In this document: in pieces, positions 6,173 to 32,884 of the stretch
Layout: each line of letters starts with the position of its first letter
How positions within the stretch are numbered: the stretch's first letter is position 1
NCBI GenBank assembly: GCA_024405155.1
Contig: JAKSPC010000022.1
Coordinates: 1-34,796 of the forward strand
Length of the DNA: 34,796 bases
Direction: 5' to 3'
From: Lachnospiraceae bacterium
Lineage (GTDB): Bacteria; Bacillota; Clostridia; Lachnospirales; Lachnospiraceae
The notes under the pieces: model-generated
What the model was told of the DNA's origin: nothing
What the model saw: only the letters and a program-made list of their open reading frames with translations
Databases searched by the model: none
Translations under genes and position numbers: made by a program

Positions 6173-6436
6173 ATGTGAGCCGCCAGCCGCTTTAAGCCGT
6201 ATCCGGCTCACATAAATGCGGAAACATCTTTTGCCGATTTGGACCTCTGGCGCCCTGACCCCCTTTCCGGCTCACATCGCTTCCGAAAATCATGCCGAAA
6301 TCGTCTCAAAACAGTTTACATAACTTTCTGCATGTGAGCTAGAATGCATTAAACAACGCCAGCGGCTCACATCGCAGTTTTTTGCCTCTGGCCGCATGTG
6401 AGCCGGAACGGCCTAAATGCTCCCTGCGGCTCACAT
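6173..6436 (+). repeat. Four-dyad intergenic element, copy A
   Basis: Dyads of exactly 41 bp lie at 6173-6213, 6237-6277, 6332-6372 and 6396-6436. Each has a left arm ATGTGAGCC and a right arm GGCTCACAT, 23 bases apart. Dyad 2 has the variant left arm ATTTGGACC, and dyad 3 has ATGTGAGCT. The spaces between dyads are 23, 54 and 23 bp; the 54-bp linker contains AGTTTACATAACT. A short CGAAAAAACCGGC precedes dyad 1. I do not recognise the element as a described family. Confidence 0.95.
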
Positions 6437-6541
6437 GAGAGTTTTGCCCCCGGTCTACTGTAAGCCGGTACGGCATACACTAAAGCTTGAACCCCTTATT
6501 TCCAGGGCGCGTCAGCGCCCCATCGCATCCACTGGACTGCA

Positions 6542-6612
6542 GGGAAACTGCTGTTCCGCCTGCAGAGCGAGCACGGAGTGCGAAGCGGCGCAGATGCGGA
6601 ATGCAGTTTCCC
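6542..6612. repeat. 71-bp hairpin in the tail of repeat A
   Basis: GGGAAACTGC (6542-6551) pairs with GCAGTTTCCC (6603-6612). The stem continues inward with TTCCGC/GCGGAA and CTGC/GCAG. The same hairpin is duplicated at 7896-7966. There is no T-run, so it does not look like a terminator; it may be a structured RNA or a DNA cruciform belonging to the repeat. Confidence 0.75.
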
Positions 6613-6704
6613 AGACGGACACGCACAGCGAAGCCGCAGGCGCGAGCAGGGCGAGCGGCAGGCTGAGGTGTGCGCCCCGCATGACTTGAGCTGCCAAAGC
6701 AAAT

Positions 6705-6738
6705 GGCCTGCGGTCACCCCCGCAGGCCCTTTCTTTTC
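6705..6738. terminator. Terminator-like hairpin downstream of the HTH gene
   Basis: A perfect 9-bp stem GGCCTGCGG-TCACCC-CCGCAGGCC is followed on the plus strand by CTTTCTTTT. It lies just past the stop of the minus-strand HTH gene, where the minus-strand side has the poorer run ATTTGCTTT. It shares its loop with the hairpin at 5861-5899. Confidence 0.6.
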
Positions 6739-6753
6739 TGTTCCAAAACTACC

Positions 6754-7392
6754 TCAATCAATTTCCGCGCATAGTTCATCCGGTGTGCAATCAAGACACG
6801 CGGAAAGTCGCCTCACCGTTTCATAAGAAGCCTTTATCAACTCTCTGTTCCCTAGTTCATACTGCTGCAGTGTCCTGATCCCCACACTACTCGCTTTCGC
6901 AAGTCCACTCTGCGACAGTCCTTTCCATCGGCGCATCCGCTGTAAAGAGGTCCTTCCCGACTCCCTGAACTTACCGTCGATCAGTTCACAGACCTTTTCC
7001 TCATCTGCTTCATGATATGGCCGGTAAAGTGAAGTCAAAGCATCCATGGTGATGACTTTGTGAATCACCCGAAAGCTCTGACACCGGCTGTATTGATAAT
7101 ACGCAAGTACCCACCCCGCCCAGAATTCCGGTGTTCTGTCAAAGGCGATCATTTCTTTATCACATACAAATGTGAGCCCTGCCTTGCTGATGACCCGTTC
7201 TGCCAGATCTCTTCCCGTGATACCTGATATCACAGAAGCATCTCCCGACTGAAAACGTTCCGCAAAGCCTCCCGCCTGAAACATCTCATAGAAGCGGTCA
7301 GCCTGTACCCCGTACGAATTCACGGCAGCATCAAATGCCTCGCCCAGGCATTCCATAGCATCTGATAGATAAGTTTCATGATAAGCAGTCAT
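6754..7392 (-). CDS. Orphan XRE-family helix-turn-helix regulator
   Basis: A 212-residue protein ending in a clear XRE-type helix-turn-helix (LQRMRRWKGLSQSGLAKASSV and RTLQQYELGNRELI, about residues 148-190). The N-terminal 140 residues include PEFWAGWVLAYYQY. From memory, similar proteins in Lachnospiraceae sit beside DUF3990/DUF3791 toxin-like genes. No such partner is present here, so it looks like an orphan regulator or antitoxin. I choose the ATG at 7392 (MTAYHETYL), preceded by GAGG, over an upstream in-frame ATG at 7449 that lies inside the promoter. The gene is bracketed by the 540-bp direct repeats, and its promoter carries a dyad suited to autoregulation. Confidence 0.8.
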   Translation of the reverse strand: MTAYHETYLSDAMECLGEAFDAAVNSYGVQADRFYEMFQAGGFAERFQSGDASVISGITGRDLAERVISKAGLTFVCDKEMIAFDRTPEFWAGWVLAYYQYSRCQSFRVIHKVITMDALTSLYRPYHEADEEKVCELIDGKFRESGRTSLQRMRRWKGLSQSGLAKASSVGIRTLQQYELGNRELIKASYETVRRLSACLDCTPDELCAEID

Positions 7393-7422
7393 GGCATTTC
7401 CCTCTTCACGGCTTATAAACTG

Positions 7423-7462
7423 TACTACCGTAGTAGTATAGCTAAGCATGTCATTTAGTCAA
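7423..7462 (-). promoter_or_regulatory. Promoter and operator of the HTH gene
   Basis: On the minus strand TTGACT (7457-7462), 16 bases and TATACT (7435-7440) form a promoter. A dyad TACTAC-CGTA-GTAGTA (7423-7438) overlaps the -10 box and the likely start point. This position fits repression by the encoded regulator, which is inference. Confidence 0.7.
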
Positions 7463-7490
7463 GCTACTTTTCACATAAACCGAGCTTGAA

Positions 7491-8029
7491 TGGAAATCAT
7501 TGATCTACACGCTCGAAAAAACCGGCATGTGAGCCGCTAGCCGCTTTAAGCCGTATCCGGCTCACATAAATGCGGAAACGTCTTTTGCCAATTTGGACCT
7601 CTGGCGCTCTGACCCCCGTTCCGGCTCACATCGCTTCCGAAAATCATGCTGAAATCGTCTCAAAATAGTTTACATAACTTTCTGCATGTGAGCCTAGCGG
7701 CGTCAAACCACGCCAGCGGCTCACATCGCAGTTTTTTGCCTCTGGCCGCATGTGAGCCGGAACGGCCTAAATGCTCCCTGCGGCTCACATGAGAGTTTTG
7801 CCCCCGGTCTACTGTAAGCCGGTACGGCATACACTAAAGCTTGAACCCCTTATTTCCAGGGCGCGTCAGCGCCCCATCGCATCCACTGGACTGCAGGGAA
7901 ACTGCTGTTCCGCCTGCAGAGCGAGCACGGAGTGCGAAGCGGCGCAGATGCGGAATGCAGTTTCCCAGACGGACACGCACAGCGAAGCCGCAGGCGCGAG
8001 CAGGGCGAGCTGCCAGGCTGAGGTGTGCG
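7491..8029 (+). repeat. Long direct repeat, right copy (contains element B)
   Basis: Second copy of the 540-bp repeat at 6137-6674. It begins TGGAAATCATTGATC and runs through element B and the 71-bp hairpin (7896-7966). Downstream it continues into an expanded tandem array (7979-8187) that is a single unit in the left copy. With its partner it brackets the HTH gene, so recombination between the copies would delete or circularise about 1354 bp. Confidence 0.93.
7527..7790 (+). repeat. Four-dyad intergenic element, copy B
   Basis: Dyads at 7527-7567, 7591-7631, 7686-7726 and 7750-7790 have the same spacings as copy A (23, 54, 23 bp). It is nearly identical to A except in dyad 3. The interior of dyad 3 (GGCGTCAAACCACGCC) resembles that of copy F rather than A and can form an inner 5-bp stem. 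Confidence 0.95.
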
Positions 8030-8187
8030 GACCCGTATGCCTTACGGCGTCAAGACATAAATTACACAGCGAAGCCGCGGACGCGAGCCAAGCGAGCGAC
8101 CAGGCTGAGGTGTGCGGACCCGCGTGTCCTGCGACGCCAAGCCAGCAAATACCACAGCGAAGCCGCAGGCGGAGGTGTGCGGACCCG
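7979..8187 (+). repeat. 87-88 bp tandem repeat, three units
   Basis: Three units begin ACAGCGAAGCCGC and end GAGGTGTGCGGACCCG, at 7979-8035, 8066-8122 and 8154-8187. The third has lost 23 internal bases. The stretches between units (30-31 bp) are homologous to each other and to the sequence after the single unit in repeat A, so this is a tandem duplication and not a CRISPR array. Confidence 0.85.
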
Positions 8188-15542: not shown

Positions 15543-15750
15543 ATCTCTTTTCCCTCTTCCGCTTACCCGCGATCTATTCTATGCTTACCTTGCGTTCTTT
15601 GCTTGCTCGCTGTTTGTTCATTGCTCTCTTACTTTTCACTCTTTTTTCTCCGCTTGCTTTTGTTCTTCGTCACCCTTGCTCTTCGCTCACTTTTGTTCTT
15701 CGCTTGTTTTTCTTTCTTTGCTTGCATTCTGTTTCTTTCACTCTTTCTTT
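15543..15750 (-). other. Purine-rich low-complexity leader
   Basis: The roughly 205-base untranslated leader of the AlbA_2 gene is almost free of pyrimidine runs on the transcribed strand, with quasi-repeats such as AAGCGAAGAACAAAAG. An internal ATG (15725-15727) opens a 32-codon frame to 15629 in which half the residues are Lys or Arg. There is no convincing ribosome binding site, so I do not call it a gene. Confidence 0.6.
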
Positions 15751-15757
15751 CACTGAA

Positions 15758-15889: not shown

Positions 15890-16292
15890 CCGAAAAACCG
15901 CAATGTGAGCCTGTGGGCGGTTTAAGCCGCTTCCGGCTCACATAAATGCGCAGGAGATTTTTGCCGATTTGGACCTCTGACGCCCTGACCCCCTTTGCGG
16001 CTCACATGAATGCAGAAAAGCAACTTCCAAACGTGTGATTTTAGTTTACATAACTTTTTCTATGTGAGCCGGAGGACAGTCAAAGCCATGTCCGGCTCAC
16101 ATGCGAGTTTTTGAGCAAATGGGCCATGTGAGCCGGGCAGGCACTTATTTGCTCTGCGGCTCACATGAGGGCATGCAAGAGGGGCTTTTGCTGCCGAAAT
16201 CAATGCCCTGGGCACGCGGCGGGGCGCTCTTTCCTTCTCTCCCACCAGCAGGAAGGGCGGCCAAAGCATGGATCCGGGCGGCGGGAGCATGT
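15890..16292 (+). repeat. Long direct repeat, left copy (contains element C)
   Basis: About 400 bp matching 17386-17786. After element C the shared tail runs AAGAGGGGCTTTTGCTGCCG, then GGAAGGGCGGCCAA, GCATGGATCCGGGCGGCGGG and AGCAT. The tail is unrelated to that of repeats A/B, so C/D form a second subfamily. The pair brackets the PD-(D/E)XK-like gene. Confidence 0.88.
15903..16166 (+). repeat. Four-dyad intergenic element, copy C
   Basis: Dyads at 15903-15943, 15967-16007, 16062-16102 and 16126-16166, with spaces of 23, 54 and 23 bp. Dyad 2 again begins ATTTGGACCTCTG. The linker has TAGTTTACATAACT. Arms of dyad 3 extend to 12 pairs (ATGTGAGCCGGA/TCCGGCTCACAT). Confidence 0.95.
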
Positions 16293-16563: not shown

Positions 16564-17379
16564 ATGACAAAAAACTATAGCAAATACGATTATATCTATG
16601 AAACAGATCGATTGGCAAAAGCTCAGGCGGCTGCCGAAAAAATGCAGGCGCCCTGGCCGAAGGGCGTGTGCCTGACAGTCCGCCACCGTCAGACGAACGG
16701 CAATGTTTACGCCTATGTTTATAAACGCGAAAAGGATCCTGACGGAAACAACGTCTTCGCATATCAAAACGAGGATGATCTTGCTGCAGAAACAGACCTG
16801 ATCAGGACTTTCTGCTCTAATCAGGTACTCAAAAAAGTGAAGGAGCTGAAGAAAACTCTATATACAGCCCCCAGGTCCTACGATCCCTTTGAAATACAAA
16901 GACTGTATGAAGACTTTTACAATGCCTTCAAAGAACTTACCCCCAGGGAATTTCAGCCCAACACCAAACAAATAAAGGTATGGCTTTCGCAGAATACCCC
17001 AAGTACACATTTCCCCGAAGAACTGAAATTTCCCACGACCCGAGGGGATAAGGTGCGTTCAAAATATGAACAGTCAATGGCCAATATTCTATATGAGCTC
17101 AACATCCCTTATCTCTACGAACGGCCTAAACAGATAAATCGCAAGCCCTACCTTCCTGACTTTACTCTGCTCGACCCGCAAAACGGTACAAGTGTATATA
17201 TTGAGGCGTTTGGACTGATGGAGAACCCGGATTATTGCAAGAAAAGCATCAAAAAGATCCATGATTACGAAGCCGCCGGATATATCCAGGGAAAAGACTT
17301 CTTCATGGTCTTCGATGATCCGGACTCTCCTTTCGATCCGGCTGCATTTCGTAATTTGATGAAACGCCGATTCTTTTAG
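16564..17379 (+). CDS. PD-(D/E)XK-like nuclease-fold protein of unknown function
   Basis: A 271-residue protein I cannot assign to a named family. Its C-terminal third resembles a restriction-endonuclease fold. Glu169 (SKYEQ) is followed by the strand-turn ending Pro198-Asp199-Phe200, then the strand VYIEAFG with Glu214, then helix and strand (KDFFMVFDD). The lysine of the classical (D/E)XK is replaced by Phe216, as happens in some nuclease-fold families. The N-terminal 150 residues are lysine/aspartate-rich with no recognised domain. A strong AAGGAGGT lies before the ATG. It is the only plus-strand gene of the window, is AT-richer than its neighbours, and is bracketed by repeats C and D, so acquisition by transfer is likely. 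Confidence 0.7.
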   Translation: MTKNYSKYDYIYETDRLAKAQAAAEKMQAPWPKGVCLTVRHRQTNGNVYAYVYKREKDPDGNNVFAYQNEDDLAAETDLIRTFCSNQVLKKVKELKKTLYTAPRSYDPFEIQRLYEDFYNAFKELTPREFQPNTKQIKVWLSQNTPSTHFPEELKFPTTRGDKVRSKYEQSMANILYELNIPYLYERPKQINRKPYLPDFTLLDPQNGTSVYIEAFGLMENPDYCKKSIKKIHDYEAAGYIQGKDFFMVFDDPDSPFDPAAFRNLMKRRFF

Positions 17380-17385: not shown

Positions 17386-17786
17386 AAATAAACCGCAATG
17401 TGAGCCTGTGGGCGGTTTGAGTCGCTTCCGGCTCACATAAATGCGCAAGAAATTTTTGCCGATTTGGACCTCTGGCGCCCTTACCCCCGATGCGGCTCAC
17501 ATGAACGAGAAAAATTGACCTTTCCGAAGGCGATTTTGGTTTACATAATATATTTCATGTGAGCCGGAGAGCGGTATTTGGCGCGTCCGGCTCACATGCG
17601 AGTTTTTGACCGGATCAGCCATGTGAGCCGGACAGGCACTTTTATGCGATGCGGCTCACATGAGGGTGCGCAAGAGGGGCTTTTGCTGCCGAAGCCAATG
17701 CCCGGGGGGATGCAATCTGCTTTTTTCTTTCTCTCCCATCAGCCGGAAGGGCGGCCAATGCATGGATCCGGGCGGCGGGAGCATCG
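17386..17786 (+). repeat. Long direct repeat, right copy (contains element D)
   Basis: Partner of 15890-16292. It begins within a few bases of the stop codon of the nuclease-like gene and includes the same GAGGGGCTTTTGCTGCCGAA and GCATGGATCCGGGCGGCGGG tail. Similarity to C stops at AGCAT near 17786. From there to about 17925 I see no gene or clear signal. Confidence 0.88.
17398..17661 (+). repeat. Four-dyad intergenic element, copy D
   Basis: Dyads at 17398-17438, 17462-17502, 17557-17597 and 17621-17661, with spaces of 23, 54 and 23 bp. The linker motif is slightly altered (GGTTTACATAATA). Dyad 1 differs from that of C by changes that keep G-U pairing in a potential inner stem. Confidence 0.95.
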
Positions 17787-22386: not shown

Positions 22387-22388
22387 TT

Positions 22389-23263: not shown

Positions 23264-24391
23264 TCAAACTTTTCTTCCGGGCAGCATTTCGTAAACGATT
23301 TCTTTGATCTCTTCAGCAACCGCTTCGGCTTCCCGCATGTTAAGGCCGATCCCTCTCGCTACCGAAAGGATATCTTCCAGCCCCGGGTTTTCCCCGTTTC
23401 CGTGTATGGTGGTGGCGTGTTCTCCGCCGATGGAATCACTGTAAGTAAGGTCATATGCCGGAGAAAGGACCCATCTGGCTTCCTTTTCGCAGTACAGATA
23501 TGAAAAATTCCTGGCGTGATCGTCCCTGTTATGGGCAAAAACGTTAAAACACATCAGCCGGAATAGCTTTCTGCACTCTGACATGTCTTTTGTAAGCTGC
23601 AGAGTAAGACGCATCAGCAGATCGTAGTCCAGATCCGGCACACGATGCGACGTCTCCAGAAGTCCGCCCGCCGTCACCATATGGATCTTATCCGCCTCAG
23701 CCGGGCCCTGCCGGTCAAAGCGTTTTACGCCAAAATATCCCTCGCACTTTTTGGAAGGAAACAGGCGCGCTTCCGCTGTTTCGATCCCGCATTTCTTTGC
23801 GCAGAGCATGTATTCATATTCACGCTTCCCCGCATTTTTTCCATCGCCATGCACCGGAAACTTAACGATCCAGTCCTCACCGTCCACTTTGGTAAGGATC
23901 TTCGGCCTGGTGCCGCCGGAGGAACCGCCTTTTTCAAAAAGAAGGTCCAGGTCATCCGAACTCTCTTCCTTCAGGATCTTCTCACAGGCCGCAGCCAGTT
24001 CATCATAAGATGCCGTTCTGCCGCTTTCCTTCACTTCCAGAGCCGGCCGGTAAGTGAGAGCCCCCATGCCGGACGTTCCCACGATAGCCAGCCTGTCAAG
24101 ATTTCCAAGCGCTGCGGGATCCACGCCGCTTTTACGCATCATCCTGTCTACCAGGAGCCTGCCCCACCCGTCAGGAAGGCTGTCCGCAAAAACACCGAAA
24201 AGTCCCTCGAAGGGATCGATCTTCGGATAAAAAACTTTCTTCTCCAGCGGCAGCGAAAAAGGACTGATGGAGAACCCTCCGGCAAGCCAGGTATCCGCGT
24301 AAGCAAAAGCCGCCTGCCTGTTTTGATGCAGAGCAAGCGTTCCTACCGGAAGATCGTGATAAAAAACATCCAGTCTGTTGATCCTATCCAT
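23264..24391 (-). CDS. hipA: HipA-family toxin kinase
   Basis: HipA-type Ser/Thr kinase. In studied relatives it phosphorylates glutamyl-tRNA synthetase or another translation target and is held inactive by HipB. The 375-residue product has an N-terminal HipA domain (VFYHDLPVGTLAL; DSLPDGWGRLLVDR). The phosphate loop GGSSGGTRPK is at 155-164, nucleotide-binding VKFP at 176-179, catalytic loop NRDDHARN at 288-295 and metal motif PAYDLT at 311-316. All key residues look intact, so it should be active. The ATG overlaps the end of hipB by 8 bases. Confidence 0.92.
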   Translation of the reverse strand: MDRINRLDVFYHDLPVGTLALHQNRQAAFAYADTWLAGGFSISPFSLPLEKKVFYPKIDPFEGLFGVFADSLPDGWGRLLVDRMMRKSGVDPAALGNLDRLAIVGTSGMGALTYRPALEVKESGRTASYDELAAACEKILKEESSDDLDLLFEKGGSSGGTRPKILTKVDGEDWIVKFPVHGDGKNAGKREYEYMLCAKKCGIETAEARLFPSKKCEGYFGVKRFDRQGPAEADKIHMVTAGGLLETSHRVPDLDYDLLMRLTLQLTKDMSECRKLFRLMCFNVFAHNRDDHARNFSYLYCEKEARWVLSPAYDLTYSDSIGGEHATTIHGNGENPGLEDILSVARGIGLNMREAEAVAEEIKEIVYEMLPGRKV

Positions 24392-24686
24392 TCTGTCTCG
24401 GGCCGCCCCGTCCCTGTTCGCTCAGCACTTCCTCGATTGACTGCGGCAAAACATCCTCGAAAAGATGATCAAGCTCGTCTTCCGTTCCCAGTGCGATCGC
24501 CAGCTTACAAAGTGATTCCAGGGAAACCTGACCGGTCCGTTCAAATCTCTTCAGTGAACCGAAACTGACTCCCGCCTTTTCCGAAAGATCTTTCTGCGAG
24601 ATCTTCCGGCGTTTTCTGATCCGACCCAGGCGCTGCGCGATCTGGATGCCGAGTTCTGATGCTGTTTTCTGAGACAAACTAATCAT
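24384..24686 (-). CDS. hipB: HipB-family helix-turn-helix antitoxin
   Basis: A 100-residue XRE-family DNA-binding antitoxin (RIRKRRKISQKDLSEKAGVSFGSLKRFERTG near residues 22-52, in parts) that should neutralise HipA and repress the operon. The C-terminal extension (SIEEVLSEQGRG) may contact the toxin. The ATG at 24686 lies only about seven bases from the -10 box and has no ribosome binding site, which points to a leaderless transcript. Confidence 0.9.
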   Translation of the reverse strand: MISLSQKTASELGIQIAQRLGRIRKRRKISQKDLSEKAGVSFGSLKRFERTGQVSLESLCKLAIALGTEDELDHLFEDVLPQSIEEVLSEQGRGGPRQNG

Positions 24687-24740
24687 GCTAATATATTATC
24701 TATTTTCCGTAATTATGTCAATATTGGATAATATATTATC
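24687..24740 (-). promoter_or_regulatory. hipBA promoter with two palindromic operators
   Basis: On the minus strand TTGACA (24716-24721), a 17-base spacer and TAATAT (24693-24698) form a near-perfect promoter. A perfect 14-bp palindrome GATAATATATTATC lies at 24727-24740, and a near-copy (GCTAATATATTATC) at 24687-24700 covers the -10 box. The centres are 40 bp apart, close to four helical turns, as expected for cooperative HipB binding. The outer operator touches the stop codon of the upstream TPP-enzyme gene. Confidence 0.85.
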
Positions 24741-26632
24741 TATCGTTCACCTTCTTCCGGCAGGGGAATGTACATCTGCCGTTCCAGTTCTTCCCGGGGA
24801 AGGAAGGGTGCCAGGTCCTCCAAAGGCGGGCTTACCAGCGTGCCGTCGGGCAGGCGCTTTGCGGAACTTTTGGGCTCCCACACCTGGTCGGTATCCGTAA
24901 AGATCTCGCAGAAAACGGGACCTTTCTGCGCAAGTGCCGCATCCACGGCTTCTTTCATTTCCGCATTGCTGCGGGCGCAGAAATAGGGGTATCCGAAGGC
25001 CCCGGCGATCTTTTCGAACGCAGGGAAGGAAAGGTCACCGGACTGGGGCCCGATGCCCACGAAGTTCTTTTGGAACAGGTTGGTCTGCGTGATGCGGATG
25101 GAGTGATAGCCCTGGTTGTTGATCAGGAAGATCTTCACGGGCAGCCGGTTGGTGAGGATGGTCTGCAGTTCCTGCAGATTCATCATGATGCTGCCGTCGC
25201 CCTCCAGGCAGATGGTCTCCTGCCGTTCGCCGCCGATGCAGGTGCCGATGGCCGCGGGAAGTCCGTAGCCCATGCTGGCGATGGCGGAGTTGTTGGCGAA
25301 ACGGGCGCCTTTTTTTATGTGCCAGGTCTGATGACCCGCCACGCAGCAGGCACCGTTGGAAACGGCGGTGAGGGCGTTTTCCGGAAGACGGCGGCTCAGA
25401 TAGTCAAGGAAGGCGTACACGTTGGTGCCTTTGCCGCTCTCTTCTTTCTGGTCCGGACGCACCACAGGGTAGGTCTCTTTCCAATAGCGGCACTTCGCAA
25501 GCCACTCTTCGCCGCAGTAAATGCCCTTCGTCCCCATGCTGCCGGGGGCGTCTTTGGAATCCACGGTGCTCAAGGAAAGCGCGGCATCCGCTGCCTTGTC
25601 CAGTTTCGTAAGGAAATCCTTCGCGTCCGCCCATACCGGCATGTCCACGTGAAGGGTATGCTTTTTGAGCTCTCCTTCGTCGATATCCACCATAATGACC
25701 TCGGCCGCGCGGGCCCAGGTCTTCCAGTCGTACCCCACCTGGCGGATGGAGATTCGCGTGCCCACGGCAAGGATGAGGTCCGCGTTCTGCACGGCCCAGT
25801 TGCCGGGACGGTCGCCCATATTTCCGCCGCGTCCGCAGTAAAGCGGGTGGTCGGTTTCGATCAAATCAATAGCATTCCAGTAGGTCACCACCGGAATGTT
25901 CAGTTTTTCAAGCACCTGGCGGAACGCCTCATAAGCGCCGCTTAAACGGATGCCGAAGCCTGCGTAAAACACCGGGCGCCTCGCATTCCGAATCTTTTCC
26001 AGTACGGTTTCTACCGTACTTATGTCAACCGTCGGAGGAAGCATGCTGTCATCTTCCGCCGGATCGTAACCCTTGAGTCCTTCCGTCTCGATGGTCATCC
26101 CCTGGAAATTTACCGGGATGTCGATCCACACAGGACCGGGACGGCCGGTCACCGCCAGATGCCAGGCCTTTTCCAGATGATAGCGGATCTCGGACGGATC
26201 TTCGATCATCACGGCGTACTTGGTCATGGGCGCCGCGGACTTTACGATGTCATATTCCTGGTCGCCCATGGCGCGAAGCACCGCGCCGGTCTCTTTATAC
26301 GCAAAGCGGGCCGTGGTGTCATAGCGCACCTGACCGCTTACCACAAACATGGGAATGGAATCCAGCCACGCGCCGCACACGCCGTTCAAGGCGTTGATGC
26401 CGCCGGGGCCGGTGGTGACGCAGAGAAGCGCGGGACGGTTCAACAGACGGGCGTAGGCTTCGGCCGCCATGGCGGAAGCCTGTTCGTGGTGGTTATAGGT
26501 AACGGTCAGCCCCTCTTTGTGGCCGAAGGCGTCGTTTAAGTGCATGGCACCGCCGCCAACCACGGAAAAAGCATCGGTCACCCCATGCTTCACCAGAAAA
26601 TCCGCCACATAATCTGCCAGTCTGATCTTCAT
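24740..26632 (-). CDS. Acetolactate synthase-like TPP-dependent enzyme (YerE-like candidate)
   Basis: A 630-residue thiamine-pyrophosphate enzyme of the acetolactate synthase superfamily. The N-terminal PYR domain has the activating glutamate (NHHEQ, Glu50) and LCVTTGPGGINALNG. A central domain has FYAGFGIRLSG. The C-terminal PP domain has the TPP-Mg motif from GDGS (478) to NN (505-506). It is longer than typical IlvB, and no small regulatory subunit is nearby. With rfbH and rfbF downstream in the cluster, I suggest it is the YerE/AviO1 type, which adds a two-carbon unit from pyruvate to a CDP-4-keto-3,6-dideoxyhexose. The ATG follows GAGGAAAAAATC. Confidence 0.75.
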   Translation of the reverse strand: MKIRLADYVADFLVKHGVTDAFSVVGGGAMHLNDAFGHKEGLTVTYNHHEQASAMAAEAYARLLNRPALLCVTTGPGGINALNGVCGAWLDSIPMFVVSGQVRYDTTARFAYKETGAVLRAMGDQEYDIVKSAAPMTKYAVMIEDPSEIRYHLEKAWHLAVTGRPGPVWIDIPVNFQGMTIETEGLKGYDPAEDDSMLPPTVDISTVETVLEKIRNARRPVFYAGFGIRLSGAYEAFRQVLEKLNIPVVTYWNAIDLIETDHPLYCGRGGNMGDRPGNWAVQNADLILAVGTRISIRQVGYDWKTWARAAEVIMVDIDEGELKKHTLHVDMPVWADAKDFLTKLDKAADAALSLSTVDSKDAPGSMGTKGIYCGEEWLAKCRYWKETYPVVRPDQKEESGKGTNVYAFLDYLSRRLPENALTAVSNGACCVAGHQTWHIKKGARFANNSAIASMGYGLPAAIGTCIGGERQETICLEGDGSIMMNLQELQTILTNRLPVKIFLINNQGYHSIRITQTNLFQKNFVGIGPQSGDLSFPAFEKIAGAFGYPYFCARSNAEMKEAVDAALAQKGPVFCEIFTDTDQVWEPKSSAKRLPDGTLVSPPLEDLAPFLPREELERQMYIPLPEEGER

Positions 26633-26718
26633 GATTTTTTCCTCTTGCTCAGTTTTTGACGTATTCCGTCGTTCTGCCGGCGCCCATTTCCCAAACCGTT
26701 CTATCCATCAAAACCGAC

Positions 26719-26982
26719 ATGTGAGCCGGAGAACAGTTTTTGCCGTGCGCGGCTCACATAAATGCTCACGAAACTTTTGCCGATTTGGACCTCTGAGACC
26801 CTTACCCCCGTTCCGGCTCACATCGCTTACGAAAATCCTGCCTAAATCGTCTTCAAATGGTTTACATAACTATTTTCATGTGAGCTAAATGCAGGAAAAA
26901 CGTGCCAGCGGCTCACATCGCAGTTTTTGACCTCCGATCGCATGTGAGCCAAAACGGCCTTCAGGCGTCCTCCGGCTCACAT
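26719..26982 (+). repeat. Four-dyad intergenic element, copy E
   Basis: Dyads at 26719-26759, 26783-26823, 26878-26918 and 26942-26982, with spaces of 23, 54 and 23 bp. Sequence is closest to the A/B type in the linker (CGCTTACGAAAATC). It is a single copy, with no A/B or C/D tail. It occupies most of the gap between the TPP-enzyme gene and the pRiA4b ORF-3-like gene. Confidence 0.95.
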
Positions 26983-26999
26983 GGGGGAACATGTTGATG

Positions 27000-27899
27000 T
27001 TATCTGATTTTTTCGATTTTCTTCTTATACTCTGAATTCGAACTTTTCTTTCCGTTTACGACTGCTTCAAACATTTCCGTCGCAAGTACTACACCAATCT
27101 TGTTCCTTGCAGTCAGATCGCCATATTTTTTCGCCAGCTCCCGATACTTTGCATTCACGTAATCTACTGTTTTTATCTGTTCGTCAATGGCCTTCATGAT
27201 TACAGTATTCAGGTGCATGTTGACGGTCGGATCTGAATCACCGGCAGCCACATTATCCAATTCTTCTGCGGTCCTCGGTTTCACTTCCAATTCGAATCCG
27301 CCTTCGTGCATGCCATCCAGGTACATTTCTATATTGCTGTCCAATGACTCGTCGAATAATTCTTTTTCTTCCGCAATGTTGAATTTTGTATCAAAATCGG
27401 ACAATTTTTCGATTTTGAAATTCCACGGGAAATAAATCCCCTCTTCCTCATTTTCTTCAGCACAGTCAGGATCCAGTTCACCGTCAAGATATCTTCCCAA
27501 AGTCCAGGCATTGTCTTCCCATATTCCCTGTCCGGTCCCGTCCACCAGAAAAGCCAGCTCTGTATTATCCAGTTTCACTTCTCTTTTATATACTTTACAA
27601 TCAAACAGCCAGTCATCGCCGGTATCATACCAGAACGAAAACTTGTCCCCAAGGTCAGAAAGACTGTATTCTTTCATGGGCACTTCATTCACGTCATTCC
27701 AGCCTTCCTCAATAAACACATCCGGACAATAAGATGTTTTTCCTTTAAGGAACAGAAAGCAATGTTCAAATTCAGCCCTTACCGCTGTACACATCGCGCA
27801 GCCCAATTCGATAAGATTAATGTCTTCCCGAACCAGGATCGTTCGATTCAGGCGGTCTTTCTTGTAACGATACTCCATTTTGATTTTTTTATAATTCAT
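27000..27899 (-). CDS. Plasmid pRiA4b ORF-3-like family protein
   Basis: A 299-residue acidic protein whose N-terminal half fits the pRiA4b ORF-3 domain: TILVREDINLIELG, FEHCFLFL and the KFSFWYDTGDDWLFDCKVYKRE segment, in parts (about residues 20-110). Family function is unknown; members occur on plasmids and in mobile regions. The C-terminal half is charged and likely helical. I choose ATG at 27899 (MNYKKIK), which follows AGAAAGG at suitable distance. Upstream, TGACA/TGTCA repeats at 27915-27941 look operator-like. The stop is 17 bases from element E. The gene is AT-richer than the sugar genes beside it. Confidence 0.75.
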   Translation of the reverse strand: MNYKKIKMEYRYKKDRLNRTILVREDINLIELGCAMCTAVRAEFEHCFLFLKGKTSYCPDVFIEEGWNDVNEVPMKEYSLSDLGDKFSFWYDTGDDWLFDCKVYKREVKLDNTELAFLVDGTGQGIWEDNAWTLGRYLDGELDPDCAEENEEEGIYFPWNFKIEKLSDFDTKFNIAEEKELFDESLDSNIEMYLDGMHEGGFELEVKPRTAEELDNVAAGDSDPTVNMHLNTVIMKAIDEQIKTVDYVNAKYRELAKKYGDLTARNKIGVVLATEMFEAVVNGKKSSNSEYKKKIEKIR

Positions 27900-27962
27900 A
27901 TCGTTCATCCTTTCTGACAAACAATTCTGTCACGGGTGTCAGCGAAAACCGCCGCCCTGCAC

Positions 27963-29306
27963 TTATCCTTTCACTGCCTCGATGATGGATTCTGCCATGT
28001 AGGCGAGCATTTCGTCCGTCATGCCGGGGTAGACGCCGATCCAGAAGGAGTCGTTCATCACCTGATCGGTGACGGTAAGGTCTCCCGCCACGCGGTAGGC
28101 GTCGGTGCCGCGGATCTGGTCGAAGCAGGGGTGCTTCACAAGGTTGCCGCTGAAAAGAAGGCGGGTCTGAATGTTGCGCCCCTCCAAAAAGCGGGTGAGC
28201 TCGTTGCGGGTGATGCCCGCCTGCGGCTTTACGGTAATGAGGAAGCCAAACCAGGAAGGATCGCCCCCTTCCACCGGCTCCGGCAGAAGGAGCTTATCGG
28301 AAACGCACTCCAGTGCCTCCCGCAGATATTTCCAGTTTTTCTTGCGTTTTTCAATAAACGACGGGAACTTCTTCAGCTGCTCGCAGCCCACCGCGGCCTG
28401 CATATCCGTCACTTTCAGATTGAAGCCGAAATGGCTGTACACGTACTTGTGATCGTAGCCGTGAGGCAGCTGGCCGAAATCGCCGTCGAAACGGTGGCCG
28501 CACATGTTGTCGTGGCCGGAGGCGCAGATGCAGTCACGGCCCCAGTCGCGGTAGGAAAGGATGAGCCTGTTAAGAAGCGGATCGTCCGTATACACGCAGC
28601 CGCCCTCGCCCATGGTCATGTGATGGGGCGGGTAGAAAGAGGACGTGCCGATATCGCCCCAGGTGCCCGTGAACTTCGTAACGCCGTTCATGGTATAGCG
28701 GGAGCCGAGCGCGTCGCAGTTATCCTCAATAAGCCACAGCCCGCGGCGGTCACAGAATTCCTTCACTGCCTTAATGTCGAAAGGATTGCCCAGGGTGTGG
28801 GCGATCATGACGGCCTTCGTTTTGGGGGACCAGGCCGCCTCCAGTTTTGTAACGTCGATATTCCCCTGGGGCACGGTCACGTCCACGAATACCGGCACGG
28901 CGCCGTACTGCAGGATGGGCGTTACGGTGGTGGGGAAGCCGCAGGCCACGGTGATGACCTCGTCGCCCCGCTTTATCTGGCGGTCTCCCAGTTCCGGCGC
29001 TGTAAGCACCATGAAGGCCAAAAGATTTGCGGATGAGCCGGAATTCACCAGATGGGCGAATTTCACGCCGATCCAGGAAGCGAAGTCCTTTTCGAACTGC
29101 TCCGCAAAACGGCCGGTGGTGAGCCAGAAATCAAGCGCCGCGTCAGTGAGCGCCTGCATTTCCTTTTCGTCAAAAACGCGGGAGGCGTAATTGATACGGT
29201 CTCCCGGCTCGAAAGCTTTTTTCGGCTCCTTAAAATCCTTATAATACTGTGCCACAAGCGCTTTGATCTGTTCGCGCGCCTCGGCTTCTGTCTTCCAATT
29301 GCTCAT
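27963..29306 (-). CDS. rfbH: CDP-4-keto-6-deoxy-D-glucose-3-dehydrase (E1), RfbH
   Basis: PMP-dependent, iron-sulfur dehydrase that removes the C3 hydroxyl of CDP-4-keto-6-deoxyglucose on the way to 3,6-dideoxyhexoses. The 447-residue product is a DegT/DnrJ-type aminotransferase fold. The PLP lysine is replaced by histidine (SSFYPPHHMTMGEGG, His228-229), the signature of this dehydrase. Cys259-X-Cys261-X7-Cys269 with Cys197 are candidate [2Fe-2S] ligands. The ATG at 29306 follows GAGGAAAGATTTG. The companion reductase (E3) and CDP-glucose 4,6-dehydratase are not in the window. Confidence 0.92.
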   Translation of the reverse strand: MSNWKTEAEAREQIKALVAQYYKDFKEPKKAFEPGDRINYASRVFDEKEMQALTDAALDFWLTTGRFAEQFEKDFASWIGVKFAHLVNSGSSANLLAFMVLTAPELGDRQIKRGDEVITVACGFPTTVTPILQYGAVPVFVDVTVPQGNIDVTKLEAAWSPKTKAVMIAHTLGNPFDIKAVKEFCDRRGLWLIEDNCDALGSRYTMNGVTKFTGTWGDIGTSSFYPPHHMTMGEGGCVYTDDPLLNRLILSYRDWGRDCICASGHDNMCGHRFDGDFGQLPHGYDHKYVYSHFGFNLKVTDMQAAVGCEQLKKFPSFIEKRKKNWKYLREALECVSDKLLLPEPVEGGDPSWFGFLITVKPQAGITRNELTRFLEGRNIQTRLLFSGNLVKHPCFDQIRGTDAYRVAGDLTVTDQVMNDSFWIGVYPGMTDEMLAYMAESIIEAVKG

Positions 29307-29333
29307 CAAATCTTTCCTCGAAAAATGCCTTGC

Positions 29334-30305
29334 TTATTCTTTCGGTCCATCCGCAGTCTTTTTGTCTTCCTGCGCGAAATTGATGCGTTCCTCTTCCACC
29401 ACCAGCGGCCGGTTCATCACCCTCTGGTTGATGGACAGCACGTACTCGCCCACCAGACCCACGAAAAGGATCTGGATGGAGCCCAGGAACAAAAGTCCTA
29501 TGAGCATGGGCGCGATGCCTGCCGGGAAACGGTCCCACCAGATGAGCTTCATGATGAGATAAATGATCGCCACCAGGAAACTTATCCCGCTGCAGATGGC
29601 GCCGATGAAGGTGGCCACGCGGAGCGCCACTTTTGTGTAGGAAGTTACGCTGAGCATCGCCGCATCGTAAAGGGTGTAGAAATTGTTGTGCGTCTTCCCC
29701 GCCCGGCGTTTCGGCTGCTCATAGGGGATCTCTTTCCGCTTGTAGCCAAGCTCCGCCACGATGCCGCGAAGGAAAGGCGTGGGATCTTTCAGGTCGCGGA
29801 GCACCTCGATGAAATCCCTGTCGTAAAGCCCGGAGCCCGTGAAGTGCTCGATCTGCTCCACGTTGGAGAATTTCTTGATCATCTTGTAGTAGAGGCTTCG
29901 AAGCCAGTACATGAACTTATTTTCCCGGCTGGTGGTCTTGATGCCGATGACGATCTTGTAGCCGTTCTCCCACTCGTGCACGTATTTGGGGATGAGCTCC
30001 ACCGGGTCCTGAAAATCCGCCACCATACTGATGACGCAGTCACCGATGCACTGCAGCATGCCGTAATACGGGGAATTGAACTGGCCGAAATTCTTGGCGT
30101 TGAAAATGGCCTTGATCTTCGGGTTCTCCGCGCACAGACCGCGCAAAAGCGGCCGGGTGTTATCCTGCGAGTCGTTGTCGATGAAGACCAGCTCGTAGTC
30201 ATAGGCGGGAAGTTCGGTTGTAATGGTATCGATCACGGCTTTCGAAATGGGGACCACGTTTTCCTCTTCGTTATAGCACGGGATCAGCACACTGATCTTT
30301 TTCAT
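29334..30305 (-). CDS. Family 2 glycosyltransferase, GtrB/DPM1-like, membrane-anchored
   Basis: Polyprenyl-phosphate hexosyltransferase-like protein, 323 residues. The GT2 domain starts KISVLIPCYNEEENVVPI, has ELVFIDNDSQDNT near 48-60 and VADFQDPVE as the metal-binding region. Two C-terminal membrane spans follow (VATFIGAICSGISFLVAIIY and APMLIGLLFLGSIQILFVGLV, in parts). Such enzymes load a sugar onto undecaprenyl phosphate for transfer at the outer face. I choose ATG at 30305, preceded by GAGGTATATTTC, over the longer frame from 30341. It lies between rfbF and rfbH. Confidence 0.9.
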   Translation of the reverse strand: MKKISVLIPCYNEEENVVPISKAVIDTITTELPAYDYELVFIDNDSQDNTRPLLRGLCAENPKIKAIFNAKNFGQFNSPYYGMLQCIGDCVISMVADFQDPVELIPKYVHEWENGYKIVIGIKTTSRENKFMYWLRSLYYKMIKKFSNVEQIEHFTGSGLYDRDFIEVLRDLKDPTPFLRGIVAELGYKRKEIPYEQPKRRAGKTHNNFYTLYDAAMLSVTSYTKVALRVATFIGAICSGISFLVAIIYLIMKLIWWDRFPAGIAPMLIGLLFLGSIQILFVGLVGEYVLSINQRVMNRPLVVEEERINFAQEDKKTADGPKE

Positions 30306-30368
30306 GAAATATACCTCAACTGGCACAGTGTGCCGGCTCACGCCGGACGCACAGTTTCCTCAACGCTT

Positions 30369-31145
30369 TTACCACAGCTTCCAGGGGGCGTTGCCGCTCT
30401 CCCACAGCTTCTCCAGCTGCTGGCGCTCTCTCTGGGAATCCATGCATTGCCAGTAGCCCTTGTGCACGTAGCTCATCAGCTGGCCCTCTTCTGCCAGGCG
30501 CTCCAGGGGCGTGGTCTCGAACACCGTTTCGTCCCCGTCCAGATAGTCGAAGATGCGGGGCTCCAGCACCATGAAGCCGGCGTTGATGGGGGCACCGTCG
30601 GACTGCTTCTTTTCGCGGAAGGAACGCACCGCGCCGTACTCGCCGATATCCAAAACGCCCTTGGTCTGGTCCATCTTGACCGCGGTGAGCGTGGCCACTT
30701 TGCCGTGGGACTTGTGGAACTTCACCAGCTCGTTCACGTCCACGTCGCACACGCCGTCGCCGTAGGTCATAAGGAACGGCTCATCGCCCACGTACTCTCT
30801 GATGCGCTTTATGCGGCCGCCGGTCATGGTATTAAGACCTGTATCCGCCACCAGCACGTTCCAGGGTTCTGCATTGGAATGAAGCACTTTCATGTCGCTC
30901 TTTCCGTCTTTGTAGCAGAACTCCACATCGGAGGAATTGATGAAATAATCGGCGAACCATTCCTTGATGATGTGCTGCTTGTAGCCGGCGCAGATAATGA
31001 AATCGTTAAACCCGTAGTGGGAATATCCCTTCATGATGTGCCACAGGATGGGCATGCCGCCGATCTCTATCATGGGCTTCGGCTTGAACTGCGATTCTTC
31101 GGAAATGCGGGTGCCGAACCCGCCGGCAAGAATTACGACTTTCAT
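30369..31145 (-). CDS. rfbF: Glucose-1-phosphate cytidylyltransferase, RfbF
   Basis: Makes CDP-glucose from glucose-1-phosphate and CTP, the entry step to CDP-3,6-dideoxyhexoses. The 258-residue product has the nucleotidyltransferase signature GGFGTRISEESQFKPKPM at residues 8-25. FLMTYGDGVCDVDV (metal-binding Asp near 130) and INAGFMVLEP follow, and the end carries YWQCMDSQRE. Length is normal. The ATG overlaps the stop of the upstream sugar transferase by four bases (ATGA). The two phosphohexomutases of the window could supply its substrate. Confidence 0.94.
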   Translation of the reverse strand: MKVVILAGGFGTRISEESQFKPKPMIEIGGMPILWHIMKGYSHYGFNDFIICAGYKQHIIKEWFADYFINSSDVEFCYKDGKSDMKVLHSNAEPWNVLVADTGLNTMTGGRIKRIREYVGDEPFLMTYGDGVCDVDVNELVKFHKSHGKVATLTAVKMDQTKGVLDIGEYGAVRSFREKKQSDGAPINAGFMVLEPRIFDYLDGDETVFETTPLERLAEEGQLMSYVHKGYWQCMDSQRERQQLEKLWESGNAPWKLW

Positions 31146-32515
31146 GAATGGGTCTCCTTTCTGTCCACGCCTTCGCTGGATTCCTTCCGGAAAAGGATCT
31201 GCGGGGTCATGAGCATGAGCTTGATATCCAGAAGCAGGGAATAGTTTTCAATGTAGATAAGGTCCAGGCGCAGCTTGTCGTACGTGCCCGTCTTGTAGCG
31301 TCCGTACACCTGGGCATACCCGGTAAGACCGCCTTTCACTTTGGTGCGGAAGGCAAACTCCGGGGTGTTCTTCACGTACTCCGCCACCAGTTCCGGTCTT
31401 TCCGGTCTTGGTCCCACGATGCTCATGTCTCCCAGGAAGATGTTGATGAGCTGGGGCAGTTCGTCCAGACGGCAGGCACGCAGCACCCGGCCCACTTTCG
31501 TGATGCGGGGGTCGTCTTCCTCCGCCATCACCGCGCCGGTGACCTGCTCCGCGTTGGGCACCATGGAGCGGAATTTCAATATGTCAAACTCGCGGCCATT
31601 GAGGGTGAGCCGCTTCTGCCGGTAGAACACCGGGCCGCCGTCGGAAAGTTTGATAGCCAGTGAGATCACCAGGAACAAGGGCGACAGTATCAAAAGGGTC
31701 ATGGCAGATAATAGCAGATCCGCCGCTCTCTTGATGAACGCCTCATGGGGCAGAAGACCTTCGTTGCGCATTTTTACCAGCGGCGTATCAAACGAGCTGA
31801 TGTCCGACGTCCCCTTCATGAGGATGTCCGTGATCTTGGGCACCATGTAAGTCACTTTGCCGCCGCCGAAACAGTACTTTAAGATATCATTTCGAAGCTC
31901 TGCCGTTACGTCGTTGATGATCACGGCACCGTGCCGGTCCACCGCCCGGAAGATCTCACTCAGGGAGACGGGCGAAGAAGCCAACGTCGATACCGCCTCT
32001 GTCACCTGATACAGTTCACTGCGGTGATCCATCTTATCCTTTAATTCCAACGCGGAATCCGTACCATAAATGAGAAGGGCATCCTTGATCCCGCAGAACT
32101 TCCGATACAGCTTCTTTGCGAAAAGAGACCACAAGAAGCAGATCACAAAGTCGATGAGCGTAAGCCGCACCATGGGCATGGCAGAGATCACGCCATTGGC
32201 GATCAGACAGATCTGCAGCCATGTGATGAAATTCACCAGCAGCACGCTGATCCACTGGGACACCGTCACATCCAGAAGCTTTAAACTGCCGAAGTCGAAA
32301 CTGTCGCACACTTTAAAGACCACATAGGCAATGACCGCATAAACGCCCATAAGGATGACCTTACCACGGAACAGGAACATGCCGTCCTGCAAGATCACCC
32401 GATACTGATCCCAGATGATGTAATAGACCACAGTCAGAAGCAGCACTTCCAGAAGTCCCGCGATCCGTGGAAACAGTGTTCTTGCCGTATTCGATTTTAG
32501 AGCAGACTTACCCAT
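31142..32515 (-). CDS. Polyprenyl glycosylphosphotransferase (initiating sugar transferase)
   Basis: Membrane enzyme that starts polysaccharide synthesis by moving a sugar-1-phosphate onto undecaprenyl phosphate. The 457-residue product has four N-terminal membrane spans (residues 17-135), a Rossmann-like middle domain, and a fifth hydrophobic segment near 275. The catalytic C-terminal domain has KRAADLLLSAM, PVFYRQKRLTLNGREF, KFRSMVPNAE, LDELPQLINIFLGDMS and VGPRPERPE. The last three are core signatures of the WbaP/CpsE-like family. The ATG follows AAGGGATT. It heads the operon that continues with rfbF, the GT2 and rfbH. Confidence 0.92.
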   Translation of the reverse strand: MGKSALKSNTARTLFPRIAGLLEVLLLTVVYYIIWDQYRVILQDGMFLFRGKVILMGVYAVIAYVVFKVCDSFDFGSLKLLDVTVSQWISVLLVNFITWLQICLIANGVISAMPMVRLTLIDFVICFLWSLFAKKLYRKFCGIKDALLIYGTDSALELKDKMDHRSELYQVTEAVSTLASSPVSLSEIFRAVDRHGAVIINDVTAELRNDILKYCFGGGKVTYMVPKITDILMKGTSDISSFDTPLVKMRNEGLLPHEAFIKRAADLLLSAMTLLILSPLFLVISLAIKLSDGGPVFYRQKRLTLNGREFDILKFRSMVPNAEQVTGAVMAEEDDPRITKVGRVLRACRLDELPQLINIFLGDMSIVGPRPERPELVAEYVKNTPEFAFRTKVKGGLTGYAQVYGRYKTGTYDKLRLDLIYIENYSLLLDIKLMLMTPQILFRKESSEGVDRKETHS

Positions 32516-32531
32516 AATCCCTTGTATGATA

Positions 32532-32578
32532 ACACAAAAAGACCCGTATGACTACCGCTTAAGTCTTACAGGTCTTTT
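32532..32578. terminator. Bidirectional terminator upstream of the sugar transferase
   Basis: AAAAGACC (32537-32544) pairs with GGTCTTTT (32571-32578), with inner GTA/TAC and GAC/GTC pairs and a ten-base loop. The minus-strand side continues GGTCTTTTTGTG. It should end transcription arriving from the second GT2 gene through element F. Its right arm runs into the left 18-bp direct repeat. Confidence 0.7.
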
Positions 32579-32593
32579 AAGAATCAATATTTG
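32576..32593. repeat. 18-bp direct repeat, left of element F
   Basis: TTTAAGAATCAATATTTG matches 32919-32936 at 17 of 18 positions. The pair encloses 325 bp containing element F and looks like a target-site duplication. Confidence 0.65.
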
Positions 32594-32621
32594 TTTACTG
32601 CCCTGCCGTCCGGCGGATGCG

Positions 32622-32884
32622 ATGTGAGCCGCTGAGCGCATTAAGGCCGTTCCGGCTCACACGCCGAAAAAGGCAAAAAACGCGATGTGAGCCGCTGGCG
32701 TGGTTTGACGCCGACAGGTTCACATGTAAAAAGTTATGTAAACTATTCTGAGACGGTTTCGGAAGGATTTTCAAGGACGATGTGAGCCGCGAAGGGGGTC
32801 AAGGCGCCAGAGGTCCAAATCGGCAAAAATTTCCTGAGCATTTATGTGAGCCAGAAGCGGCTCAAGCCGCTCAGAGGCTCACAT
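32622..32884 (-). repeat. Four-dyad intergenic element, copy F (inverted)
   Basis: Relative to the other copies it is reversed. Dyads 1 to 4 are at 32844-32884, 32780-32820, 32685-32725 and 32622-32662, with spaces of 23, 54 and 22 bp. Dyad 4 has one arm change (GTGTGAGCC) and dyad 3 has ATGTGAACC. Dyad 1 has a perfect inner stem AGCGGC-TTGA-GCCGCT. Confidence 0.94.

What the first reader, a model, noticed from the sequence alone, without database searches (positions are those of the whole stretch)
6173..32884. An apparently undescribed 264-bp intergenic element built of four fixed-length dyads, present six times
Seen directly: six copies (6173-6436, 7527-7790, 15903-16166, 17398-17661, 26719-26982, 32622-32884 inverted), each with four 41-bp dyads ATGTGAGCC-N23-GGCTCACAT. 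Dyad spaces are 23, 54 and 23 bp in five copies, with a single-base loss in F. The 23-bp gap between paired dyads equals the 23-bp interior, so arms repeat about every 32 bp (close to three helical turns) in alternating orientation. A core GTTTACATAA sits in the linker of all copies. Strict geometry with variable interiors suggests a multi-protein binding array or hairpin-forming mobile DNA rather than passive duplication. I do not recognise it as REP/BIME, ERIC, BOX or an att site family.
Basis: partly seen in the sequence, partly recalled or inferred. Interest (0 to 1): 0.93.

Follow-up and report, generated by a model that had tools for sequence, protein, structure and literature searches.

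The report
Nuclease-linked, helically spaced DNA repeat ladders
The six repeats belong to a group of bacterial non-coding DNA "ladders", in which a short word recurs in alternating direction at near-constant, helix-matched spacing, and related ladders with other words often sit beside genes of one uncharacterised nuclease-like family in related genomes, which suggests an undescribed nuclease-and-repeat system.

Summary
The repeat is real: six copies at the stated places, with one correction (the left arm of dyad 2 is always ATTTGGACC; 14 of 24 dyads are exact). The genome holds 38 copies; the exact dyad is in none of 24 congeners. Arms and spacing are conserved while interiors drift: 35 of 997 differences fall in the 24% of columns that are arms, and 30 of 35 copies keep identical steps. 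Spacers between dyads are nearly as length-fixed as the dyads, so this looks like a phased ladder of alternating sites, not only hairpins. Ladders with other arms exist in this genome, a congener (period 52-53) and another genus (period 62). The window gene 16564-17379, between copies 3 and 4, belongs to an unnamed PD-(D/E)XK-like nuclease family. Among the best-scoring relatives of that gene, 16 of 34 (seeds excluded) have a ladder within about 1.5 kb, against 4 ladders in 1.44 Mb of background (Fisher 1e-16), usually 5' of the gene and with its own arms. Best reading: a two-component nuclease/repeat system, analogous to RAYT/REP but unrelated. The association is shown; binding, cutting and mobility are inferred.

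The parts
6173..6436 (+). family A ladder copy 1 (arms at 6173 L, 6205 R, 6269 R, 6332 L, 6364 R, 6396 L, 6428 R; core at 6314-6323)
7527..7790 (+). family A ladder copy 2 (arms 7527 L, 7559 R, 7623 R, 7686 L, 7718 R, 7750 L, 7782 R; core 7668-7677)
   Evidence: shares its right flank with copy 1
15903..16166 (+). family A ladder copy 3, about 400 bp upstream of the nuclease-like gene
16564..17379 (+). 271-aa PD-(D/E)XK-like nuclease gene, proposed partner of the family A ladders
   Evidence: no Pfam family at 1e-3; homologous to the gene beside a ladder in another genus (E 2e-16); C-terminal match to PADLOC PDC-S68 and to PHROG Holliday junction resolvase
17398..17661 (+). family A ladder copy 4, with 18 bp between the nuclease-like gene's stop codon and its first arm
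26719..26982 (+). family A ladder copy 5
32622..32884 (-). family A ladder copy 6 (263 bp, one base missing in spacer 3)
6163..6172 (+). conserved left border AAAAACCGGC (copy 1; same or close variant in the other aligned copies)

Best explanation
The repeat is one family of a class of intergenic DNA ladders: a 7-9 bp arm repeated in alternating orientation with a period of about 62-64 bp (6 helical turns, half-step 31-32) or about 52-54 bp (5 turns, half-step 26-27). Each ladder type has a cognate small protein: a variable N-terminal part, presumed to recognise the arm, and a C-terminal PD-(D/E)XK-like (resolvase-type) nuclease domain, usually encoded just downstream of a founder ladder. Protomers are proposed to bind the phased arms as an ordered array. 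The nuclease then cuts the ladder, or the cruciforms its inverted arms can form, and break repair copies ladders into new intergenic sites, leaving dispersed non-autonomous copies such as those here. SHOWN: ladder geometry, conservation, and the gene-ladder association. SUGGESTED: arm-protein co-variation. INFERRED: binding, cleavage, copying, and that the gene at 16564-17379 serves the family A copies.
For: Arms change about ten times more slowly than interiors (0.56 against 5.2-6.4 differences per site; 35 of 997 in 63 of 264 columns); isolated differences between close copies avoid arms (0 of 31, expected 7.4). Steps are identical in 30 of 35 copies, and gaps per mismatch are about 4.5-7 times rarer than in shared flanks (pairs not independent). 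R-to-L steps are also near-constant in A, E, G019 and G067. A/T is phased in dissimilar interiors of the three 62-64 bp families tested (z 2.7, 6.4, 8.7). The window gene and the gene beside the G067 ladder are homologous; 106 of 299 genomes of the family, own included, hold homologues. Ladders occur at 9 of 28 new loci among the 30 best-scoring fetched (strict scan) against 3 in 1.29 Mb (Fisher 2e-9), and at 16 of 34 against 4 in 1.44 Mb (looser scan). All 9 strict cases lie 5' of the gene. The own-genome homologue on C9 carries a family C ladder. Close homologues in four genera carry AAGCATC; protein and arm similarity correlate (Spearman 0.48, p 0.0005). PADLOC PDC-S68 matches 34 of 34, PHROG resolvase 12 of 34.
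Against: 18 of 34 non-seed homologue loci show no ladder even in the looser scan, including own-genome C27, C20, C8 and G067 C9; L269 and L274 are among these 18 but carry the arm word. Families E and B and the G019 family have no partner gene found, though only pieces were searched. No target-site duplication was noticed and no empty site was available; mobility rests on 38 copies here and none in 24 congeners. Some data favour a folded single strand: 17 arm changes keep pairing by G-U on the + strand against 4 on the other, interiors pair better than shuffled ones (mean z -0.5 to -1.9), and the unit folds at z -7.3 and -9.3. A/T phasing is reversed in the 26-bp family (z -2.4). That L-R and R-L steps come out equal depends on where the arm's centre is put (family C gives 31-32 with one 7-mer, 26 and 37 with another word); only the period and the constancy do not. 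In family A the R-L steps vary slightly more than the dyads. In the arm-protein test the arms of L269 and L274 were looked for as AAGCATC and are not independent. No structure prediction was possible.
Confidence: 0.55

Rival explanations
1. Operator or nucleoid array: the ladders bind a regulatory or architectural protein (possibly the nuclease-family protein as an autoregulator), and dispersed copies control or organise neighbouring DNA without any cutting or copying.
For: Phased sites with near-constant steps; 9 of 9 strict new ladders lie 5' of the gene; the left-hand gene points away from the element in 30 of 35 cases, and with co-directional neighbours the element is antisense to both in 20 against 4; isolated changes avoid arms.
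Against: Neighbour genes in the window show no shared theme (MreB, phosphoglucomutase, TPP enzyme, glycosyltransferase); 38 copies in one species and none in 24 congeners; the linked proteins carry conserved nuclease motifs.
Confidence: 0.22
2. Ordinary MITE: a palindromic non-autonomous transposon with terminal inverted repeats of about 19 bp (AAAAACCG-NN-ATGTGAGCC) moved by an unrelated transposase; the nuclease link is incidental.
For: The unit is a near palindrome whose outer ends match in inverted orientation; lineage-restricted amplification.
Against: No target-site duplication noticed; no matching Y1 partner; does not explain the spacing constraint, other arm families, or the 16 of 34 gene-ladder pairs. 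Other transposase families were not searched, and two partial IstB-model matches were not examined.
Confidence: 0.13
3. Structured RNA or ssDNA element: the hairpins act in transcripts or single strands (attenuation, decay control, or strand-specific transposition).
For: G-U-keeping arm changes 17 to 4, favourable interiors, low folding energy, orientation bias.
Against: No Rfam match; the right arm of dyad 2 is conserved in 34 of 35 copies although its left partner is only partly complementary and that dyad folds weakly (mean -6.6 against -17 to -24 kcal/mol); spacers between hairpins are nearly as length-constrained as the hairpins; only 1 of 39 predicted pairs shows a change on both sides.
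Confidence: 0.08

Closest known systems
REP/BIME/REPIN repeats with RAYT (Y1 HUH) transposases
   Same: Short intergenic palindromic repeats in many copies, with a resident gene flanked by the same repeat type and proposed to mobilise them (PMC3733652: abstract and passages seen).
   Different: Partner is PD-(D/E)XK-like, not Y1; no GTAG/CGTC tag at the borders; arrays of 4-16 arms at helix-matched steps. The genome's own RAYT-like gene is flanked by a different hairpin.
Phased protein-binding arrays (plasmid F sopC 43-bp repeats with inverted arms; helically phased FIS sites; Lrp arrays), recalled; one search gave only a listing on sopC
   Same: Repeated half-sites at fixed, helix-matched spacing that seed a nucleoprotein complex.
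   Different: Those are single centromeres or promoters with known ParB/FIS/Lrp proteins; here dozens of dispersed copies and a nuclease-type partner with changing arm words.
BOX (pneumococcus), ERIC, NIME/dRS3 interspersed repeats, recalled; only the starts of the abstracts of PMC3049150 and PMC2229807 were seen
   Same: Modular intergenic repeats, some with variable numbers of inner modules (here a five-dyad and a one-dyad copy).
   Different: No alternating phased arms and no linked nuclease gene as far as recalled.
PADLOC PDC-S68 and similar PD-(D/E)XK domains
   Same: Nuclease-type domain matches in 34 of 34 homologues; six plasmid records match too, five of them annotated as AAA ATPases or helicases.
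   Different: Here a stand-alone protein of about 270 residues, often beside a DNA ladder.

Membership tests
REP/RAYT | Y1 (HUH) transposase gene flanked by the same repeat | tested here: not met
   Two Y1 genes in the genome; the RAYT-like one on C14 is flanked by GACGGTTCTTCTGTC-type hairpins, not ladder arms; TGTGAGCC is absent from 2.1 kb around the other
REP/RAYT | GTAG or CGTC tag at one end of a 20-40 bp palindrome (PMC3733652) | tested here: not met
   No such conserved tag at the borders of 35 aligned copies
MITE | terminal inverted repeats | tested here: met
   AAAAACCG..ATGTGAGCC against GGCTCACAT..CGGTTTTT; the outer part is clear on the left and looser on the right
MITE | target-site duplication | tested here: inconclusive
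   none noticed by eye in the 37 rows, two of which lack a true right end; no systematic test and no empty site
MITE | cognate transposase with the same ends | tested here: inconclusive
   only Y1 and the IS21 helper model were searched; two partial IstB matches over the cut-off lie in ORFs of 404 and 460 aa and were not examined; the model rings in 13 of 14 control genomes
CRISPR array | direct repeats separated by unique spacers | tested here: not met
   arms alternate in orientation; interiors recur between copies
Structured RNA family (Rfam) | match at gathering score | tested here: not met
   0 matches in the window
ERIC / BOX | family consensus sequence | not tested
PD-(D/E)XK nuclease superfamily (partner protein) | E, PD and (D/E)xK-type motifs | tested here: inconclusive
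   invariant RSKxE, PDF and E(214)-x-x-G, but no lysine at the K position; PADLOC and PHROG nuclease models match; no structure was available

The most novel reading that the evidence does not exclude
A previously undescribed two-component genetic system of this bacterial family: small stand-alone PD-(D/E)XK nucleases that each recognise their own helically phased ladder of alternating arms, with ladder word and protein co-evolving, and that spread solitary ladders through the host chromosome as a resolvase-type counterpart of RAYT/REP.
Probability: 0.45. Interest if true: 0.92.

Novelty: categorically new. Interest (0 to 1): 0.85.

Why it matters
It would add a second, independent solution to how bacteria gain families of intergenic repeats with a dedicated resident enzyme, built on a different nuclease fold and on helical phasing instead of single hairpins. 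It gives a ready set of natural protein-DNA pairs (about one third of the sampled genomes hold the gene) in which recognition words differ while geometry stays, so DNA specificity, assembly on phased sites, and repeat spread all become testable. If the ladders are instead regulatory or architectural, they mark dozens of defined sites per chromosome.

Tried and rejected
IS21-type origin, suggested by GTTTACATAAC tandem repeats in congener G011: not settled; the IstB model gave two partial matches over its cut-off in this genome, in ORFs of 404 and 460 aa, which were not examined. RAYT/Y1 mobilisation: no support. Intrinsic terminators: in 15700-33000, terminator-like sites are no more frequent than in shuffles (20 against 20.4). 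Replication-strand bias as sole cause of orientation: antisense majority at 30 of 38 loci, but gene strand and GC skew correlate (0.75), so not separable. Homologues of the 264-bp unit elsewhere: none convincing in 149 other genomes (best E 0.011), 24 congeners (weak partial matches in six, best E 0.0017), plasmids and phages, viral contigs (exact dyad); 13 stretches with a single dyad in the 84,980-species collection, about the number expected by chance (expectation reckoned by hand). A first gap count misled, because the aligner put spurious gaps in divergent pairs; one search used only similar pairs. The solved-structure search gave no nuclease (best 0.008, over the N-terminal part).

Literature: nine library searches (one search was on sopC). 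No title or abstract start in the listings describes such ladders or their nuclease link. Only listings were seen, except abstract and passages of PMC3733652. Most subscription papers and all preprints were not searchable.
Full report
OBSERVATION. Six copies of a 264-bp repeat lie at the stated places (copy 6 is 263 bp and inverted). Fourteen dyads match ATGTGAGCC-N23-GGCTCACAT exactly, none in 100 shuffles. The alignment shows the core GTTTACATAA in all six and one correction: the left arm of dyad 2 is ATTTGGACC throughout. No Rfam family and no tRNA in the window.

GENOME-WIDE. The genome (2.03 Mb, 46 contigs) holds 76 exact dyads against 0 for the reversed pattern. BLAST and an HMM give 38 places: 35 full-length (alignment A1), one cut at a contig end (C32), one truncated (C16) and one with a second family nested in its centre (C18). 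Three shorter remnants were also matched (C1:15186, C25:13202, C30:161). Some near-identical copies (MST edges of 0, 2 and 2 differences) could be assembly duplicates. There is a five-dyad copy (C21) and a collapsed one-dyad copy (C30). The exact dyad occurs in 0 of 24 congeners, 15 of them at least 90% complete; a profile of the whole unit gave weak partial matches in six of them.

CONSTRAINT. On a minimum spanning tree of the 35 copies, 35 of 997 differences fall in the 63 arm columns (expected 238) and 4 in the ten-column core. On the closest edges, isolated differences never hit arms (0 of 31, expected 7.4; with wider edges 3 of 64, expected 15.3), so arms look constrained in each copy, not only in active ancestors; conversion between copies could contribute, which is why isolated changes were used. 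Arm steps are 32,64,63,32,32,32 in 30 of 35 copies; the other five have one step changed by 1 or 2 bases, four in linkers and one inside dyad 2. With the degenerate dyad-2 left arm and the core counted as arms, centre distances are 32,32,32,42,21,32,32,32 bp, near 3,3,3,4,2,3,3,3 turns (reckoned by hand from the alignment). Gaps per mismatch are 0.016-0.043 inside the unit and 0.098-0.306 in shared flanks (pairs are not independent).

CONTEXT. With my own ORF caller (genes of score 40 or more) no copy overlaps a gene by more than 15 bp. The left-hand gene points away from the element in 30 of 35 cases; with co-directional neighbours the element is antisense to both in 20 and sense in 4. Window neighbours are unrelated in function.

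OTHER LADDERS IN THIS GENOME. Family E (TGTAAGCC; 18 exact dyads, control 0) lies at eight loci with 1-4 exact dyads each; ladder parts with steps of 31-33 bp show at seven of them. Family C (ACATATAAT) has period 63 at one locus on C1 and another ladder on C9. Family B (TGGCATCG; 10 exact dyads, control 0) has 39-bp dyads with dyad-to-dyad distances of 74 and 95 bp, so it is phased but not evenly spaced. Own-genome stretches were mostly chosen around copies, so their density is not a genome estimate.

OTHER GENOMES. Congener G019 has arms GCAAAGAA with steps of 25-27 bp or, where an arm is missing, about 52: 11 exact dyads at six loci. G067, another genus, has CGTTGCAC with steps of 31, rarely 30 or 32, up to 13 evenly spaced arms: 20 exact dyads. 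A scan for at least four alternating 7-mer arms at constant step found 0 in shuffled own sequence, 3 ladders in 1.294 Mb of relatives (71 regions), 0 in 104 kb of other phyla and 0 in 150 kb of E. coli. Of 21 array clusters checked in E, G019 and G067, 7 overlap an ORF of 120 aa in some frame and 14 none. In families A and E and in G067, A/T lies on the axis between arms and in phase with the helix even among dissimilar interiors (z 2.7, 6.4, 8.7); the 26-bp family shows the reverse (z -2.4).

WHY A LADDER. If only hairpins mattered, R-to-L distances should be free. They are close to fixed in A, E, G019 and G067. In family A the three true dyads never change length while the linkers do in 4 copies, so linkers are slightly looser. 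Whether L-R and R-L steps are equal depends on which letters count as the arm's centre; the period and its constancy do not. The right arm of dyad 2 is conserved in 34 of 35 copies with a partly complementary partner. Against a purely double-stranded reading, arm changes favour G-U-keeping changes on one strand (17 against 4 on the tree) and interiors pair better than shuffled ones. Cruciform or hairpin forms may therefore matter too, which would fit a resolvase-like enzyme.

THE PARTNER GENE. The gene 16564-17379 lies between copies 3 and 4 and points against its larger neighbours. It has no Pfam match at 1e-3. The gene beside the longest G067 ladder is homologous (29% over 155 residues, E 2e-16). 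A profile of the two found homologues in 106 of 299 genomes of the family (own included), often in several copies, five in this genome. Thirty loci were fetched, in general the best match of each top-scoring genome, so they are not a random sample. The strict scan found ladders at 9 of the 28 non-seed loci, each with steps of 31-32 or 26-27 bp, all 5' of the gene. A scan allowing one missing arm, with six further own-genome and G067 loci added, found 16 of 34 non-seed loci against 4 ladders in 1.444 Mb (Fisher 1e-16). Of those four background ladders two are G067's, one of them the seed's own; one is G019's array; one (L143) may be chance. Some loose-scan positives with only 4 arms (L284, L289, L290, L292) are likewise weaker. 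Of the 16, 14 have a 5' ladder (L292 and L301 are 3' only). The own-genome homologue on C9 carries a family C ladder, and the second G067 homologue has an ATTCAGC ladder. Own-genome homologues C27, C20 and C8 and G067's C9 have none. The seeds were noticed because of their ladders and are left out of the tests. No homologue was found by tblastn in the fetched G019 pieces.

CO-VARIATION. L270 and L276, from different genera and 67% identical, were found independently to use AAGCATC. L269 and L274, similar proteins from two more genera, were then checked for that word: 11 and 5 occurrences in their loci (expected 0.8 and 0.6). In L269 nine lie upstream of the gene with steps that include 32 and 41 bp; in L274 all five are in one orientation. 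Across 16 gene-ladder pairs protein and arm similarity correlate (Spearman 0.48, p 0.0005, the smallest value 2000 permutations can give), with the caveat that two arms were looked up and one clade carries much of the signal. Own family B's arm is the reverse complement of L278's CGATGCC(A).

THE PROTEIN. In 34 aligned homologues the invariant residues include RSKxE, YxYExP in part, PDF and a later E, read from general knowledge as PD-(D/E)XK-like; the usual lysine is not there. PADLOC PDC-S68 matches 34 of 34 (in the window protein over residues 144-261), PHROG Holliday junction resolvase 12 of 34. Six plasmid records match, five annotated as AAA ATPases or helicases. Three short phage-labelled contigs from human faeces also match, one over 93% of the query, so the gene may travel on phages. 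No Pfam or NCBIfam family fits. The N-terminal half is more variable, a natural place for arm recognition (inference).

HOW IT MAY WORK. Protein copies occupy the arms on one face of the helix, alternating orientation implying two kinds of two-fold contact; the ladder upstream of the gene may also regulate it; the nuclease cuts ladder DNA or its cruciforms, and repair or recombination copies the ladder elsewhere, leaving solitary ladders. Every step after the gene-ladder association is inferred.

NOVELTY. It works somewhat like RAYT/REP but fails that family's tests. Nine searches of an open-access library showed nothing like it in their listings; most subscription papers could not be searched.

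Noticed in passing
window 5898-6090: Tandem array of a 16-bp unit (TTCGTCCCATCCCCTG, 12 copies) ending about 80 bp before copy 1; the G019 ladder also has an 18-bp tandem array beside it (L194:4130-4284).
   Followed up: partly
window 6624-8186: GC-rich repeats (CACAGCGAAGCCGCAGGCGCGAGC...) follow copies 1 and 2; the two copies share several hundred bases of right flank.
   Followed up: no
L059:5893-6256 (own C18): Family A copy whose middle is replaced by a family B array, with the shared core word in opposite orientation.
   Followed up: partly
L057:3061-3762 (own C14): RAYT-like gene flanked by GACGGTTCTTCTGTC-type hairpins, 1.9 kb from a family A copy but with a different repeat.
   Followed up: yes
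L153:11297-11354 (G011): Three tandem 24-bp repeats carrying GTTTACATAA, the core word of family A, between an MgtC-like and a ChrA-like gene (names recalled).
   Followed up: partly
G000 C43: 15282, 33760, 51721, 69788: Four family A copies at nearly even 18-kb spacing on one contig; possibly chance.
   Followed up: no
window 6754-7449: HTH protein gene (HTH_3) lies between copies 1 and 2; a lone ATGTGAGCC sits inside it at 7170.
   Followed up: no
phage-collection records MT839528.1, MT837260.1, MT839248.1: Short phage-labelled contigs from human faeces encode relatives of the nuclease-like protein; their flanks were not scanned for ladders.
   Followed up: no
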